Below, piece by piece: positions 13,401 to 20,661 of a stretch of DNA of 42,803 nucleotides. Position numbers and translations under genes: made by a program. The notes under the pieces are model-generated. The model saw only the letters and a list, made by a program, of their open reading frames with translations. It had not been told where the DNA came from and did not search any database. The stretch covers positions 1 to 42,803 of the forward strand of contig CANRYZ010000008.1 of the NCBI GenBank assembly GCA_947644365.1, given 5' to 3'. Origin of the DNA: an uncultured Oscillibacter sp. Its GTDB lineage: Bacteria; Bacillota; Clostridia; Oscillospirales; Oscillospiraceae. Every line of letters starts with the position of its first letter. Position 1 is the first letter of the stretch.

Positions 13401-13463
13401 AGGGATGCCTCCTTGTATTCTGTCATGGGGATGACCGCCCGTTCCGGGCGGCGGGGCTTTTTC

Positions 13464-13712
13464 CTGCCCTTGCGGGCGGGGGGATTTCAGCCATGCCGAT
13501 GGCTGGTCCGGGGATGCACCCCCCATTTTCTCTTTTCTCTCTCTTGCGAGAGAAAAGAGAAAACGGGCCGTGCACGGTCCAAAAGAGAAAAGAGAACGCT
13601 TGGGCACTTGCGGGAGCCTCACGCTTCGATGGAAGGGGATGGAGGAAATTTGATGGGTAGACGCATCGGCTTCCTTCTCTTCCCGCGCTTCGCGCCTGGC
13701 TTGCCGCGTGCG
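13464..13712 (+). repeat. Non-coding repeat family, copy 1
   Basis: About 250 bp closely matching the reverse complement of 19190-19434 and the core of 18796-18931. It contains a perfect hairpin of TTTCTCTTTTCTCTC type arms, the palindromic core GGGCCGTGCACGGTCC at 13565-13580, and a distal block with CTTCCCGCGCTTCGCGCC. The frames open across it translate into low-quality Arg/Pro/Gly sequence, so I read it as non-coding. Confidence 0.7.
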
Positions 13713-13880
13713 GGATGCTCCCTCCGTCTATCGCTGTATCCCCGGTGTACGCCGTAGGGGTTGCCGCTCTCGGCGGTCTGCCCCTTGATACTTTCAATAG
13801 ACCTGGTAGGGACGGTTATCAACCGCCCGTTCCTCTCAAATATCGGACCTTCGGCAGAAGCCTGCAATAGGGACTGCCCC
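13713..13880. other. Intergenic tail of repeat copy 1
   Basis: I see no gene, promoter or convincing hairpin here. Open frames have no start with a ribosome site and no family resemblance. The stretch may be further repeat-derived sequence. Confidence 0.4.
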
Positions 13881-14444: not shown

Positions 14445-15467
<1,023 letters not shown>

Positions 15468-16024: not shown

Positions 16025-16591
16025 TCACAGTACATTTTTTCCGTATTCGTATTCTTCCCTCAGTTTGCTGTCGTCATATATCGTGCTGCGCCCCCGTTCG
16101 ATGGCGATCGTACCGGTTTTGGCGATCTCCAGGATGCCGAAGTCGGCCAGCATGGAGATCAGGGCGGTGTTCTTGCTCCGGCCGCCGAAGACCCAGATGG
16201 TCAGGCACTCCCGGTCCACGTCGATGACCTGGGCGCGAAAGATATTCACGATCTGGATGATCTCGTCCCGGGCGGTCCGGTCCGCGGCCCGGACCTTGAT
16301 GAGGGCGATCTCCCGCCGGATGCAGGACTCCTCGTCGAAGATCTTCACGGCCTTCACGGGCAGGAGCTTGCGGCACTGGGCGGCGATCTGCTCGATCATG
16401 AGCCCGTCCGCCGCCAGCTCGATGGAGATGCGGGTGATGCCGGGCCGGTCCGTGGCCCCGGAGACGATGGACTCGATGTTGTAGCCCTTCCGGGAGAACA
16501 GGCGGGACACCTGGCTCAGCACGCCGGGGATGTCCTCTACCAGGATGCACAGGGTGTAGAGCTTGCGCTCGGCGCTTGTCTGCTTTTTCAT
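16025..16591 (-). CDS. ilvN: Acetolactate synthase small (regulatory) subunit
   Basis: Encodes 188 residues. It binds the catalytic subunit IlvB, raises its activity and confers feedback inhibition, usually by valine. An ACT domain occupies about residues 11-85 (YTLCILVEDIPGVLSQVSRL, then GYNIESIVSG). The C-terminal ALS_SS domain follows, with ALIKVRAADRTARDEI. The length lies above the short E. coli IlvN type and matches the common long form. The start at 16591 overlaps the ilvB stop (ATGA at 16588-16591), which points to translational coupling. Confidence 0.95.
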   Translation of the reverse strand: MKKQTSAERKLYTLCILVEDIPGVLSQVSRLFSRKGYNIESIVSGATDRPGITRISIELAADGLMIEQIAAQCRKLLPVKAVKIFDEESCIRREIALIKVRAADRTARDEIIQIVNIFRAQVIDVDRECLTIWVFGGRSKNTALISMLADFGILEIAKTGTIAIERGRSTIYDDSKLREEYEYGKNVL

Positions 16592-18306
16592 AGGCTGCCT
16601 CCCTCGTCCAGCAGGAAGTCCGTGATGGGGGACCCGGCGGCCACCATGGGCCGTACCACCTCGTCTATATCCAGCACGCAGTCGATCACCGCGCCGGCGC
16701 CGCAGGAGAGGGCCTGGTCCAGCGCCGCCTCCATCTCCGCCCGGGTGGACGCCCGGAAGCCCCGCAGGCCGTAGGCCTCCGCCAGCTTCACAAAGTCCGG
16801 GCCCCGGTCCAGGGTGGTCTCGGAGAACCGCTGGCCGTAGATCAGGTTCTGCCACTGGCGCACCATGCCCAATGTGCCGTTGTTGAAGACCACGGTGACG
16901 ATGGGCAGGCCGTAGCGCTCCACGGTGCACAGCTCATGGCAGTTCATGCGGAAGCACCCGTCCCCGGTCATGTGGAGAACCCGCTTGTCCGGATTCCCCA
17001 TCTGGGCGCCGATGGCGGCCCCCAGGCCGAAGCCCATGGTGCCGAAGCCGCCGGAGGTCAGGAGCTGGCCGGGGTAGTCGAAGTGGAGGTACTTGATGGA
17101 CCACATCTGGTGCTGGCCCACGTCCGTGGCCACGATGGCGTCTTTGGGAGCCCGAAGGCGGATGGTCTCCAGCACCTGCTGGGGGGTGAGGCGGGGGCTG
17201 TCCTCCGCCACGGAGGGGGCCCGCAGGGGCAGGATGCGGTCCTTCCAGCCGCTGCGGCTGTACTGGGGAAGGCCCGCGTTCAGCATCTCCAGCACCTTGC
17301 GGGCGGAGCCGATGATGTGGTGGTCCGTCAGCACGTTCTTGTCAATTTCCGCCCGGTCGATGTCGATCTGCACGATTTTCGCCTGTCTGGCGAAGCTCCG
17401 GGGGTCCAGGGCCACCCGGTCCGAGAACCGGCACCCCACGGCGATGAGCAGGTCGCACTCGTCGCAGGCCACGTTGGAGGCCTTGGACCCGTGCATACCG
17501 ATCATGCCGGTGGTGAGAGGGTGGCTGCCGGGGAAGCCGCCGCCGCCCATGACGGTGATGGCCACCGGCGCGTCCAGCCTCTCGGCGAAGGTCCGGAAGG
17601 CCCGGTCCGCCCGGCCCCGGACCACGCCGCCGCCGCAGATCAGCAGGGGGCGCTCCGATTGCCCGATCATCTCCAGCAGCGTCTCCACGTCCTGGGGATC
17701 GGGACCGGGGTTTTTCAGGGGGTGGGCGCTGTTCAGCTCCCGGACGCCGCCGGAGGCCCGGTTCTCCCGCCAGGGGGTGAACTCGTAGTCGATCTCCTGC
17801 CTGGGGTCGGTGACGTTTTTCAAAAAGTCGATGAGCACCGGGCCGGGGCGGCCGTTGGCGGCCACGGCAAAGGCCTGGCGCATGACGTCGGGGATGGTCT
17901 GGGGGTCCCGCACCAGGAAGGCGGCCTTGGTGATGGGCATGGCGATGCCGGTGGAGTCCACCTCCTGAAAGGCGTCCTTGCCCAGCAGATTCTCCCCCAC
18001 GTTGCAGGTGATGAACACCACGGGGGAGGAGTCCAGGCAGGCGGTGGCGATGCCTGTTACGAGGTTGGTGGCCCCGGGGCCGGAGGTGGCGAAGCATACG
18101 CCCACCTTCCCCGTGGACCGGGCGTAGCCGTCCGCCGCGTGGGCCGCGCCCTGCTCGTGGGCGGTGAGGACGTGGCGGATCTTGCCCCGGTAGCGGTAGA
18201 GCTCGTCGTAGAGGTTTAAGATGGTGCCGCCGGGGTAGCCGAAGACGGTGTCCACCTCCTGCTCCAGCAGGCACTCCATGATGGCCGCAGGCGCTTTGAT
18301 CTTCAA
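16588..18306 (-). CDS. ilvB: Acetolactate synthase large (catalytic) subunit
   Basis: Encodes 572 residues. It condenses two pyruvates, or pyruvate and 2-oxobutyrate, using thiamine diphosphate. The N-terminus has GYPGGTILNLYDEL and the catalytic-glutamate region LTAHEQGAAHAADGYAR. The C-terminal cofactor motif runs from MTGDGCFRMNCHEL to VVFNNGTLGM. The start codon is TTG at 18306, with AAGGAGG 8 bases upstream; no better ATG exists. A 280-nt leader precedes it, with a promoter at 18586-18614, a peptide rich in Leu, Ile and Val codons and a terminator at 18348-18380. Expression is therefore probably controlled by transcription attenuation. The rare TTG start may lower basal translation. Confidence 0.95.
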   Translation of the reverse strand: MKIKAPAAIMECLLEQEVDTVFGYPGGTILNLYDELYRYRGKIRHVLTAHEQGAAHAADGYARSTGKVGVCFATSGPGATNLVTGIATACLDSSPVVFITCNVGENLLGKDAFQEVDSTGIAMPITKAAFLVRDPQTIPDVMRQAFAVAANGRPGPVLIDFLKNVTDPRQEIDYEFTPWRENRASGGVRELNSAHPLKNPGPDPQDVETLLEMIGQSERPLLICGGGVVRGRADRAFRTFAERLDAPVAITVMGGGGFPGSHPLTTGMIGMHGSKASNVACDECDLLIAVGCRFSDRVALDPRSFARQAKIVQIDIDRAEIDKNVLTDHHIIGSARKVLEMLNAGLPQYSRSGWKDRILPLRAPSVAEDSPRLTPQQVLETIRLRAPKDAIVATDVGQHQMWSIKYLHFDYPGQLLTSGGFGTMGFGLGAAIGAQMGNPDKRVLHMTGDGCFRMNCHELCTVERYGLPIVTVVFNNGTLGMVRQWQNLIYGQRFSETTLDRGPDFVKLAEAYGLRGFRASTRAEMEAALDQALSCGAGAVIDCVLDIDEVVRPMVAAGSPITDFLLDEGGSL

Positions 18307-18347
18307 GTTATCAGCCTCCTTGAGTAAAGGATCGGGGGGAGAGGCAA

Positions 18348-18380
18348 AAAGTCCGTGGCCCTGGCCGGGTCACGGACTTT
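18348..18380 (-). terminator. Attenuator terminator upstream of ilvB
   Basis: On the minus strand AAAGTCCGTG (18371-18380) pairs perfectly with CACGGACTTT (18348-18357) around a GC-rich 13-base loop, followed by TTTTTGCC. It ends about 40 bp before the ilvB start and 34 bp after the leader-peptide stop, the classical place for an attenuator. Confidence 0.8.
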
Positions 18381-18414
18381 CAAACGGTTGACTGCGGTTC
18401 CGGCTTCTTACCAA

Positions 18415-18552
18415 TTATCCTCGGCAGGAACCGGGGGCCGTATTCGCTGTGTGTGCATGACCAGGCGCACTATTCTGTTTTCCGGTAATAATCACCAGAG
18501 CCAGAATAATGTAAATAACCAGAATGCTGTTGAGAGTGAGCATACCAGCCAT
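18415..18552 (-). CDS. Branched-chain leader peptide of the ilvB operon
   Basis: A 45-residue ORF starting at 18552 with GGAGGAGG about 6 bases upstream. Residues 5-22 hold thirteen Leu, Ile or Val residues; the run ILVIYIILALVII spans residues 10-22. A Gly/Ala/Pro/His tail follows. Downstream come a 7-bp hairpin (CGGTTCC with GGAACCG) and then the terminator at 18348-18380. GGTCATG inside the ORF (18456-18462) can pair with CGTGACC in the terminator arm (18368-18374), a possible antiterminator. Stalling at uncharged Leu, Ile or Val codons would expose it. This mirrors E. coli ilvL logic but is not related in sequence. The alternative is a one-helix membrane peptide. Confidence 0.7.
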   Translation of the reverse strand: MAGMLTLNSILVIYIILALVIITGKQNSAPGHAHTANTAPGSCRG

Positions 18553-18585
18553 GGGAGACCTCCTCCGTGCCTGTCTTGTTTTGCT

Positions 18586-18614
18586 ATTATACCTGCCGGA
18601 TGGTGAAAGCGCAA
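18586..18614 (-). promoter_or_regulatory. Promoter of the ilvB operon
   Basis: On the minus strand TTGCGC (18609-18614) and a perfect TATAAT (18586-18591) are 17 bp apart. It lies 34 bp before the leader peptide and about 280 bp before ilvB. Confidence 0.75.
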
Positions 18615-18795
18615 CAAAAAAATTCGCCGGCCTGTTGATTCTGGATAAATCAACGAATATTTTGGGGAGATAAATCCACTTTATGGTGAAATACCACAGA
18701 GGATTTCGGGGGATTTCCCCTGGGTGCGCTGATGAATTTTCCAGACAACGCGGGATGTAGTATGACCGGCGGGACCTGTGAGGAGGGGGTTACGT
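18615..18795. other. Intergenic stretch between the ilvB promoter and repeat copy 2
   Basis: AT-rich at first, then mixed. No start codon with a ribosome site opens a credible gene, and I see no strong hairpin. Confidence 0.4.
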
Positions 18796-19140
18796 TCGCC
18801 CTGGCGGGCGGGGCGGGAGTCAGCCCCTTATCGGAGGCTGGTGCAGATGCACCCCCCATTTCTCTTTTCTCTGTCTTGCCAGAGAAAAGAGAAACGGGCC
18901 GTGCACGGTCCAAAGAGAAAAGAGAACGCCGGGCACGAATTTGACCGCGAGGGTCAAATTGTGCCCAAAGTACGGGGGCTGGCCTGAACCGGTGCCAAGG
19001 TGAATTGCCACCCCTCTACCGGCTGCGTCTGACAGCGTACCTTGCGGGGGCGCTCTGCCGCATTTGTGACTTCCTCCGAGGTTGTTTTGCTGCTTTGACG
19101 CATCGTCCCTAGCGCCTCTTCCCGCGCTTCGCGCCTGGCC
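18796..19140 (+). repeat. Non-coding repeat family, copy 2 (diverged middle)
   Basis: 18796-18931 carries the same head as copy 1: CTGGCGGGCGGGG, GCACCCCCCATTTCTC, the purine-rich hairpin and the core GGGCCGTGCACGGTCC. About 165 bp of unrelated sequence follows, and the tail block with CTCTTCCCGCGCTTCGCGCC returns at 19116-19136. The middle therefore looks replaced or inserted. Confidence 0.6.
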
Positions 19141-19229
19141 TGGCACGTTTGGGCAGGCCCGCCCGTCTACCGCCGGTAGACGAACCCTCTTCCCCGCACG
19201 GGACCGCTAGGCGCGAAGCGCGGGAAGAG
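19116..19229. repeat. 21-bp perfect inverted repeat joining repeat copies 2 and 3
   Basis: Arms 19116-19136 and 19209-19229 are perfectly complementary over 21 bp, because copies 2 and 3 meet tail to tail. A further 7-bp hairpin (GTCTACC, 19165-19171, with 19175-19181) sits in the loop. Confidence 0.75.
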
Positions 19230-19434
19230 AAGAAAGTCCATGCGTCTAACCATCAAATTTCCTGAGCGCCCTTCAATCGAAGCGTGAGACTTCCGAGAGT
19301 GCCCAAAGCGCCCTTTTCTCTTTTGGACCGTGCACGGCCCGTTTTCTCTTTTCGGCGCGGCGAAAAGAGAAAATGGGGAGGGCATCCCCGGACCAGCCAT
19401 CGACATGGCTGAATTCCGCCCCGCCCGCAAGGGC
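19190..19434 (-). repeat. Non-coding repeat family, copy 3 (inverted)
   Basis: Read on the minus strand it follows copy 1 almost throughout: CCTTGCGGGCGGGG, CAGCCATGTCGATGGCTGG, TCCGGGGATGC, the purine hairpin, GGGCCGTGCACGGTCC, TCTCACGCTTCGAT, GAAATTTGATGG and CTTCCCGCGCTTCGCGCC. The hairpin loop differs from copy 1. Confidence 0.7.
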
Positions 19435-19541
19435 GAGTACAGCCCCTTGTGCTATGGATGCAGAACCATTCGAAGAGTCCCTGTTCAAGGTTTGTGTTGT
19501 TAACAGCTGTTTTTCAAAAGTATTCGTCAAAACACCGAAAG

Positions 19542-20366: not shown

Positions 20367-20661
20367 AAAGCAAAATGCACAGATACGATGACAGGGAGAA
20401 AGTCCCCCCGGAGCGCTTCAGAGAGCCGCCGGTTGCTGCGAGGCGGCGCGGAGGGGGAGGACGTCACTGGCCCTCGAGTATTTCCGCTGAGCCCGGAGGA
20501 GGGTTAGGCGGGAACGGGTTTCCCCACCGTTACCATAGGGGCGGGATTCGCGCGGCGGCGCCGTACCGATCCCGGGAGCGGGCAGTTTTTTGCCAATGAG
20601 AGTGGTACCGCGGAAGTTTCGGCTTTCGTCTCTTCAAATTCGAAGGGGCGGAGGCTTTTTT
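20367..20661 (+). ncRNA. T-box riboswitch, probably sensing tRNA-Leu
   Basis: The conserved antiterminator sequence AGAGTGGTACCGCGG is at 20599-20613. The following terminator has a 14-bp stem (20622-20635 with 20642-20655, including G-U pairs) and six T residues. Stem I features are seen upstream: CAGAGAGCCG with its distal loop near 20411-20440, and a GAACGGG...CCGTTACC stem at 20513-20534. A CTC triplet at 20473-20475, in the expected specifier region, would select a leucine tRNA; that assignment is tentative. Uncharged tRNA should stabilise the antiterminator and allow leuA transcription. Confidence 0.92.

What the first reader, a model, noticed from the sequence alone, without database searches (positions are those of the whole stretch)
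18306..18614. Leader-peptide attenuator controlling ilvB in a Firmicute
Between a consensus-like promoter and ilvB lies a 45-codon ORF with its own strong ribosome site. Thirteen of residues 5-22 are Leu, Ile or Val. After its stop come a 7-bp hairpin and an intrinsic terminator placed just before ilvB. GGTCATG inside the ORF can pair with CGTGACC in the terminator arm, so a ribosome stalled on the branched-chain codons could favour antitermination. This is the ilvL principle of enterobacteria. Firmicutes are better known for T-boxes in this place.
Basis: partly seen in the sequence, partly recalled or inferred. Interest (0 to 1): 0.8.

Follow-up and report, generated by a model that had tools for sequence, protein, structure and literature searches.

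The report
Leader-peptide attenuator ahead of ilvB
Ahead of the genes that make leucine, isoleucine and valine in a likely Oscillibacter-like bacterium lies a short reading frame packed with codons for those three amino acids, then a terminator; its RNA strands are conserved in related genomes and are predicted to let a ribosome starved of these amino acids switch the genes on, where T-box RNAs are the better-known switch in Firmicutes.

Summary
On the minus strand, between a TATAAT box and ilvB-ilvN...ilvC, lie a 45-codon ORF (18415-18552; 13 of residues 5-22 are Leu/Ile/Val), a hairpin and an intrinsic terminator (18346-18381). A model built from 38 leaders finds 45 strong places in 43 of 86 genomes of the genus, all ahead of ilv genes; the seven places not used to build it are too. 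Strand 1 (CATTATTCT, Ile-Ile-Leu codons) pairs with strand 2 (AGAATAGTG), with two-sided changes in 5 of 9 pairs. Strand 2 also pairs with the terminator's 5' arm, and the two co-vary (0 of 20,000 permutations match own pairing). In six leaders strand 2 is kept although read in another frame, so it is conserved as RNA, not peptide. In silico, a ribosome on strand 1 raises mean antiterminator pairing from 0.22 to 0.74 over 45 leaders; the window's own RNA forms it even without a ribosome, a caveat. Similar designs with other sequences stand at ilvB in other genera and families of the order. The principle is already known in Firmicutes (S. aureus, Listeria), so this is a new, well-supported member of a known kind. 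I had no expression data.

The parts
18586..18614 (-). promoter-like: TTGCGC (18609-18614), 17-nt spacer, TATAAT (18586-18591)
   Evidence: read from sequence; -35 only 3 of 6, not listed by the scan; similar TTG...TATAAT upstream of some relatives' leaders (seen by eye)
18559..18566 (-). Shine-Dalgarno of the leader ORF (GGAGGAGG)
   Evidence: sequence
18415..18552 (-). leader ORF, 45 codons, 13 of residues 5-22 Leu/Ile/Val
   Evidence: protein search gave 8 entries of 43-47 aa without domains, one of them identical to the window's own
18503..18511 (-). strand 1, CATTATTCT (Ile-Ile-Leu codons)
   Evidence: pairs with strand 2: 98.8% of cells in 38 leaders, 5 of 9 pairs with two-sided changes
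18468..18476 (-). strand 2, part pairing with strand 1, AGAATAGTG, inside the ORF
18456..18466 (-). strand 2, part pairing with strand 3, GCCTGGTCATG, inside the ORF
   Evidence: GGTCATG exact in 42 of 45 leaders; co-varies with strand 3
18395..18434 (-). intervening hairpin that straddles the ORF stop
   Evidence: 7-bp complement CGGTTCC/GGAACCG by eye; minimum-energy fold uses the overlapping CCGGTTC/AGCCGG
18364..18374 (-). strand 3, CGTGACCCGGC, 5' arm and loop of the terminator
18346..18381 (-). intrinsic terminator (strands 3:4) with T-run
   Evidence: terminator in 45 of 45 leaders
16588..18306 (-). ilvB, acetolactate synthase large subunit (regulated gene)
   Evidence: TIGR00118 657 bits, cut-off 538; Pfam
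16028..16591 (-). ilvN, acetolactate synthase small subunit
   Evidence: TIGR00119 151 bits, cut-off 57
14445..15467 (-). ilvC, ketol-acid reductoisomerase (co-transcription not tested)
   Evidence: TIGR00465 415 bits, cut-off 226

Best explanation
The leader is most likely a ribosome-mediated transcription attenuator of the ilv operon: a ribosome held up at the Leu/Ile/Val codons of the 45-codon leader ORF would free strand 2 to pair with the terminator's 5' arm (antiterminator), whereas a ribosome that reads on would cover strand 2 and let the terminator stop transcription before ilvB. Shown by sequence comparison: the ORF, its codon cluster, strands 1 to 4, their co-variation and their fixed place ahead of ilv genes. 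Predicted by folding: the effect of ribosome position. Inferred: that uncharged Leu-, Ile- or Val-tRNA is the signal and that read-through changes in vivo. Which of the three amino acids matters most is open; Ile and Leu codons (ATT ATT CTG) lie in strand 1 itself.
For: (a) 45 of 45 leaders of the genus carry an ORF with 9-17 L/I/V before strand 2 (57% of 1131 residues) and a terminator 56-87 nt after GGTC. (b) The genome scan gave 45 strong places (52 bits or more) in 43 of 86 genomes, all ahead of ilvB, its acetolactate-synthase paralogue or, in G008, directly ahead of ilvC; 38 built the model, 7 were new. (c) Helix 1:2 co-varies (5 of 9 pairs with two-sided changes, 0 of 500 shuffles; slid registers at most 62% paired against 98.8%). 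(d) Helix 2:3: own duplexes average -15.4 against -13.4 kcal/mol for swapped ones, 0 of 20,000 permutations as good; the 7 core pairs are standard in 37 of 37 leaders with the commoner terminator type, and outer pairs change together. (e) In 6 of 45 leaders strand 2 is in another frame and in 2 the stop precedes GGTC: RNA, not peptide, is conserved. (f) Ile ATT in 174 of 200 leader codons against 15 of 157 in six window genes; Val GTA+GTT 125 of 164 against 12 of 177. (g) Masking strand 1 raises antiterminator pairing in 31 of 45 leaders; in the window a ribosome with its A-site at codons 12-24 leaves it at about 1.0, at codons 26-36 it is about 0. (h) Diverged leaders at ilvB in other genera and families whose strand 2:3 sequences differ yet still match.
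Against: No expression data. In the window's own RNA helices 1:2 and 2:3 are predicted compatible (P 0.81-0.84 and 0.98-0.99 with no ribosome), so the anti-antiterminator role of 1:2 is weak here, and an untranslated leader would read through; with the ribosome at codons 38-44 the two transcript starts tried gave mixed values (0.00 to 0.99). In 2 of 45 leaders masking lowered, and in 12 did not clearly change, antiterminator pairing. The 8 leaders with the other terminator type, and L130, form only short 2:3 duplexes (-9.0 to -12.5 kcal/mol). In the commoner type the outermost 2:3 position is unpaired in 22 of 33 leaders and the next in 8 of 33. Sequences in one genus are related, so shuffles and permutations overstate independence. 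Half of the genus's genomes (43 of 86) lack the element; some of them have an ilvB. In Streptomyces coelicolor, mutating the codons of a similar ilvB leader had no effect (told in PMC1262725).
Confidence: 0.88

Rival explanations
1. The ORF encodes a small membrane protein that merely sits upstream of ilvB; the terminator ends its own transcript.
For: The L/I/V run is long enough for one membrane helix; 7 close homologues of 43-47 aa besides the window's own exist in the databases.
Against: None of the 8 entries has a domain; the 45 strong places in 86 genomes are all ahead of ilv genes; second half read in another frame in 6 of 45; L/I/V make up 81% of A/F/L/I/V/M/W/C residues and use unusual synonymous codons.
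Confidence: 0.04
2. The leader acts through the nascent peptide (ligand- or drug-induced arrest) or through translational coupling, not through tRNA-limited stalling.
For: Recurrent C-terminal ..NSxFGHA in many of the peptides.
Against: That motif is dictated by strand 2 nucleotides and is lost in the 6 frame-shifted leaders and the 2 that end before GGTC; the terminator lies before the ilvB ribosome site.
Confidence: 0.05
3. A T-box or metabolite riboswitch controls ilvB here.
For: T-boxes stand at ilvB in some relatives (L015, L068) and at leuA in the window.
Against: No Rfam match for the leader, even at E up to 5 apart from one irrelevant 13-nt hit.
Confidence: 0.02
4. A constitutive terminator that only sets basal ilv expression; pairing of strands is incidental.
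For: In the window the fold shows no sharp switch without a ribosome.
Against: Strands 2 and 3 co-vary, which a plain terminator does not need.
Confidence: 0.03

Closest known systems
Staphylococcus aureus ilv-leu (ilvD) leucine-rich attenuator peptide (PMC5794164, passages read)
   Same: Firmicute, BCAA-rich leader ORF and terminator before BCAA genes; ribosome stalling proposed to favour an antiterminator; reporter responds to Leu
   Different: Precedes ilvD; different structure (its proposed antiterminator pairs with the terminator's U tail); here a co-varying strand 2 lies inside the ORF
Listeria monocytogenes Rli60 (PMC5864092, passages read)
   Same: Ribosome-mediated attenuator of ilv-leu genes in a Firmicute, tested by reporter and by RBS, start-codon and terminator mutations
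   Different: 13-aa peptide; the alternative hairpins are described as downstream of the peptide, here strand 2 lies within the ORF
Histidine leader peptides of Bacillus (PMC2965389, passages) and of Clostridium difficile hisZ (mentioned in PMC4833913, passages)
   Same: Leader-peptide systems in Firmicutes at genes that carry T-boxes elsewhere
   Different: Histidine, other genes
Enterobacterial ilv/leu leaders (recalled)
   Same: Leader peptide with Leu/Ile/Val codons, mutually exclusive hairpins, intrinsic terminator
   Different: No sequence relation known to me; in the classical cases the ORF covers strand 1 only (recalled)
Actinobacterial ilvB leaders (PMC1262725 passages; PMC10272879 and PMC11857589 listings only)
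   Same: Leu/Ile/Val ORF and terminator before ilvB
   Different: Other phylum; in S. coelicolor codon changes had no effect
T-box leader (RF00230)
   Same: Stands at ilvB in some other Oscillospiraceae and at leuA in this window
   Different: Reads tRNA directly without translation; no T-box match in the ilvB leader

Membership tests
Ribosome-mediated (leader-peptide) transcription attenuator | short ORF with its own ribosome site before the structural gene | tested here: met
   ORF and SD present and in 45 of 45 leaders; that it is translated was not testable
Ribosome-mediated (leader-peptide) transcription attenuator | cluster of codons for the pathway's end products | tested here: met
   13 of 18 L/I/V; 0 of 3000 shuffles; conserved
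Ribosome-mediated (leader-peptide) transcription attenuator | intrinsic terminator between ORF and gene | tested here: met
   45 of 45
Ribosome-mediated (leader-peptide) transcription attenuator | alternative antiterminator pairing with the terminator arm | tested here: met
   weak in the 8 leaders with the other terminator type
Ribosome-mediated (leader-peptide) transcription attenuator | 1:2 hairpin that excludes the antiterminator | tested here: inconclusive
   1:2 co-varies and masking it shifts 31 of 45 leaders, but 1:2 and 2:3 are predicted compatible in the window
Ribosome-mediated (leader-peptide) transcription attenuator | read-through responds to charged-tRNA supply | not testable with these tools
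   needs reporter or RNA-seq
T-box leader (RF00230) | match to the covariance model | tested here: not met
   searches show none at 18200-18720; the leuA leader at 20379-20636 scores 92.6 bits against a cut-off of 93
Rfam families of amino-acid leaders | match to any of 4227 models | tested here: not met

The most novel reading that the evidence does not exclude
An unnamed, order-wide class of branched-chain leader-peptide attenuators in Clostridia in which the switching strand is written inside the leader ORF: Ile-Ile codons (AUU AUU) pair with Asn-Asn/Ser codons (AAU AAU/AGU) downstream in the same ORF, and the ribosome erases the antiterminator by reading through it. Its sequences turn over fast while strand 2 and strand 3 stay matched, and it takes the place of the T-box at ilvB lineage by lineage.
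Probability: 0.45. Interest if true: 0.6.

Novelty: new member of a known kind. Interest (0 to 1): 0.5.

Why it matters
T-boxes are the textbook amino-acid switch of Firmicutes. Here one genome keeps both designs side by side: a T-box before leuA-leuC-leuD-leuB and a predicted leader-peptide attenuator before ilvB. Within the order, ilvB is headed by a T-box in some lineages and a leader peptide in others, never both in the 80 upstream regions scanned. That makes a natural series for asking how one sensing system is exchanged for another at the same gene, and gives a covariation-backed RNA model for annotating uncultured Oscillospiraceae.

Tried and rejected
Rejected: T-box or riboswitch at ilvB. 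Small membrane protein. Weak R1/R2 matches (about 24-35 bits), mostly in His-rich repeat genes where GGTCATG repeats mimic the model, and without a leader ORF on either strand where both were scanned: L191, L193-L195, L197, L200-L205, L227-L231, L234, L236 and the G764 place (L319) (L200-L204 were read on the match strand only). Weak matches kept after reading: L190, L192, L226, L235, and two where the leader lies on the strand opposite to the match, L237 and L196 (the same place as L238).

No result: leader or T-box ahead of ilvB or its paralogue in genomes of the genus without the element: L148-L154 and L141 (Rfam and motif), L213-L220 and L224 (motif only), within the roughly 850-1160 bases fetched. 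L221-L223 were fetched and not examined. A second copy in the own genome: only a 15-bit match.

Literature: ten searches of a library that lacks most subscription papers found no description of an ilv leader peptide in Oscillospiraceae or other Clostridia. A survey by Lopatovskaya and others that PMC4833913 cites was not read and could contain one.
Full report
What is there. ilvB lies on the minus strand at 16588-18306, followed by ilvN and, after a gap of about 560 bases, ilvC. Upstream, still on the minus strand, the order is TATAAT (18586-18591; -35 box TTGCGC, only 3 of 6), a Shine-Dalgarno, a 45-codon ORF (18552-18415), a hairpin that straddles its stop, a terminator (18381-18346) and the ilvB ribosome site. 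Residues 5-22 of the ORF hold 13 Leu/Ile/Val; none of 3000 dinucleotide shuffles of the region contains an ORF with 13 of 18. No Rfam family matches.

Relatives. The genome is an incomplete assembly. Two contigs of its genus carry the title 'Oscillibacter sp.' (L009, L010; their contig lengths equal those of G035:C113 and G022:C14), so the genus is likely Oscillibacter-like. I located 38 leaders ahead of ilvB or of an acetolactate-synthase paralogue that heads the operon in many species (the paralogue's family was checked in one, L161). A covariance model from these (R1) was run over all 86 genomes of the genus held: 51 places at E up to 0.001 in 45 genomes. 45 places of 52 bits or more, in 43 genomes, are genuine; the other six (25-33 bits) were read: five lie in His-rich repeat genes, one in an unrelated gene. 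Of the 45, 38 had built the model; the seven new ones lie ahead of the paralogue (G066, G038, G070, G042), ilvB (G068), a reading frame joining the start of IlvB to IlvN (G080) and ilvC in G008, where no ilvB or ilvN stands between. So the leader follows the pathway rather than one gene. 43 of 86 genomes lack it; many of those have no good IlvB match, but a clade with 72-75% identical IlvB and a few others do, and there I found neither leader nor T-box.

Helix 1:2. RNAalifold on 38 cores, given no structure, predicts exactly one helix, CATTATTCT with AGAATAGTG. Counts: 98.8% of cells paired, 5 of 9 pairs with changes on both sides, 0 of 500 shuffles reach any measure, slid registers 34-62% paired. 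Examples: L140 CACCGTTCT/AGAACGGTG, L102 CATGATTCT/AGAATCATG. In a 24-sequence set that includes five leaders from outside the genus: 97.7% of cells, again 5 of 9 pairs; there 9 of 500 shuffles reach the number of pair types. The sequences are related, so the shuffles overstate significance.

Helix 2:3. Strand 2 continues as GCGTTTGGTCATG in most leaders; GGTCATG is exact in 42 of 45. It pairs with CGTGACCCGAC in the terminator's 5' arm and loop. Each leader's own pair averages -15.4 kcal/mol, swapped pairs -13.4; 0 of 20,000 permutations are as good; against shuffled strand 3, 37 of 45 have z below -1. In the 37 leaders with the commoner terminator the seven core pairs are all standard. In the 33 of them that fit one register (4 fit another), the outer positions, going outwards, read: U-G 22, C-G 5, U-A 5, unpaired 1; U-A 27, U-G 3, C-G 3; G-C 30, U-A 1, unpaired 2; C-G 15, U-A 8, G-C 1, U-G 1, unpaired 8; G-C 11, unpaired 22. 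Own pairs average 10.95 of 12, permuted 10.67; 0 of 10,000 permutations reach it. The window has GCC/GGC where most have GUU/GAC. The 8 leaders left out of that count carry a different terminator (..GGTTCGACCAACGAACC.. in several) and form shorter duplexes (-9.0 to -12.5 kcal/mol).

RNA, not peptide. In 6 of 45 leaders strand 2 stands in another frame, giving for instance ..NRIVRLVMR.. for ..NSAFGHA.., and in 2 the stop comes just before GGTC. The first half is conserved in kind: 57% of 1131 residues before strand 2 are L/I/V, and L/I/V are 81% of A/F/L/I/V/M/W/C; Ile is ATT in 174 of 200 against 15 of 157 in six window genes, Val is GTA or GTT in 125 of 164 against 12 of 177. The unusual codons may be dictated by pairing, or make stalling more sensitive; I cannot tell which.

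Ribosome position in silico. For nascent RNA ending before the terminator's 3' arm, mean antiterminator pairing over 45 leaders is 0.22 free and 0.74 when the stretch up to 12 nt past strand 1 is masked; higher in 31, lower in 2, about equal in 12. In the window free RNA already forms both helices (1:2 at 0.81-0.84, 2:3 at 0.98-0.99). A ribosome with its A-site at codons 12-24 removes 1:2 and leaves 2:3 at about 1.0; at codons 26-36 it removes 2:3; at 38-44 values differ with the transcript start chosen. Thus in the window the ribosome's direct cover of strand 2 would do the switching, and 1:2 seems less decisive than in relatives such as L198 or L120. Once the 3' arm is included the terminator wins in the free RNA. 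The mask sizes are my choice.

Beyond the genus. R1 over 400 genomes of the family: 12 with a match; 4 are the genus, 3 are leaders before ilvB (L190 and L192 of genus g45; L196 of g43, on the strand opposite to the match), 5 are false. R1 over 394 genomes of the order: 13 with a match; 2 are the genus, L190 and L196 again, two new ones, L225 (family f13, 75.6 bits, IlvB 79% identical to the window's, so transfer or misbinning is possible) and L226 (family f19), and 7 false. R2 over 391 genomes of the class: 4 with a match: the window, L235 ahead of a LeuA-like gene, which looks real, and two false. R2 over 394 of the order: 8 with a match; 7 real, among them the new L237 (family f23), before ilvB and opposite to the match, and 1 false. 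Their strand 2:3 pairs differ in sequence yet match: L226 GUUAAUGUU/AACAUUAAC, L190 CAAUUAGUCA/UGACUGAUUG, L192 and L012 GCUAAAUGUU/AACGUUUAGC and AAUGUUUAGC, L196 CUGAAAGUC/GGCUUUUGG (-10.7 to -15.7 kcal/mol); L237's is weaker (-8.2). These single duplexes have no shuffled control.

T-box or leader. In a 197-genome sample of the order 84 genomes encode an IlvB relative at E up to 1e-150. I fetched 80 of the 83 places outside the window (one cut short by a contig end) and scanned up to 650 bases upstream: 8 have a T-box core motif, 9 a leader ORF with 8 of 12 L/I/V and a Shine-Dalgarno, none both; the same ORF scan hits 10 of 400 mononucleotide shuffles, so about two of the 9 could be chance. 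The criterion also misses real leaders (L240 and L241 are the regions of L226 and L190). Of the 9, L299 has no terminator and looks like a membrane protein. The other 8 have a terminator and a 2:3 match; z against shuffled strand 3 is -1.8 or lower in 5 and -0.4 to -0.9 in 3, with a coarser search for the shuffles that flatters the observed value. A like scan of 78 upstream regions from named contigs gave 5 T-box motifs and 6 leader ORFs, controls 4 of 390. Rfam confirms T-boxes in L015 and L068.

Same genome, two designs. leuA-leuC-leuD-leuB, on the plus strand about 2 kb from the leader, is headed by a T-box (20379-20636, 92.6 bits, cut-off 93). By eye on the Rfam alignment its specifier reads CUG (Leu); uncertain. 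The genome has 13 T-box matches, 3 over the cut-off.

Known or new. Leader-peptide attenuation of BCAA genes is classical in enterobacteria (recalled) and has been tested in two Firmicutes: S. aureus (PMC5794164) and L. monocytogenes Rli60 (PMC5864092) (passages read); the former also says it is predicted in Lactococcus and Streptococcus. Naville and Gautheret (PMC2965389, passages) reported his leader peptides replacing T-boxes in Firmicutes, and PMC4833913 (passages) mentions one at hisZ of Clostridium difficile. Ten literature searches found no clostridial ilv leader peptide, but the library is partial. So: a new member of a known kind, with an unusual but not unprecedented place and, as a possible distinguishing trait, strand 2 inside the ORF.

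Noticed in passing
window 20379-20636 (+): T-box leader ahead of leuA-leuC-leuD-leuB, 92.6 bits, just under Rfam's cut-off of 93; specifier read by eye as CUG (Leu).
   Followed up: partly
window 13453-13734 and 18852-19446: Related repeats flank the ilvBNC region on both sides, as direct (58 nt at 79%, 43 nt at 91%) and inverted copies (101, 85 and 41 nt, the 41-nt pair 100% complementary); the 43-nt copies are themselves inverted repeats of the kind TTTCTCTTTTCTCT...AGAGAAAAGAGAAA.
   Followed up: no
L198 (G008) 2427-2508: Leader directly ahead of ilvC with no ilvB or ilvN between; in L199 (G080) the leader precedes a reading frame joining the first residues of IlvB to IlvN.
   Followed up: partly
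L235 (G1120), hit 1501-1582: Leader peptide MNMLTFTSNILLLIAIIILAITKQSKNSAVCRVLN with terminator ahead of a LeuA-like gene in another family of the class.
   Followed up: partly
L196 (G215) and L237 (G623): The covariance models matched these ilvB leaders on the wrong strand, because strands 1 and 2 are nearly palindromic; a scan that reads only the match strand discards them.
   Followed up: yes
G044 and G057: Two leaders per genome, one ahead of ilvB and one ahead of the acetolactate-synthase paralogue on another contig.
   Followed up: no
   Followed up: partly
L087, 69-165 bases before ilvB: Oribacterium sinus has an L/I/V-rich short ORF before ilvB but the script found no terminator.
   Followed up: no
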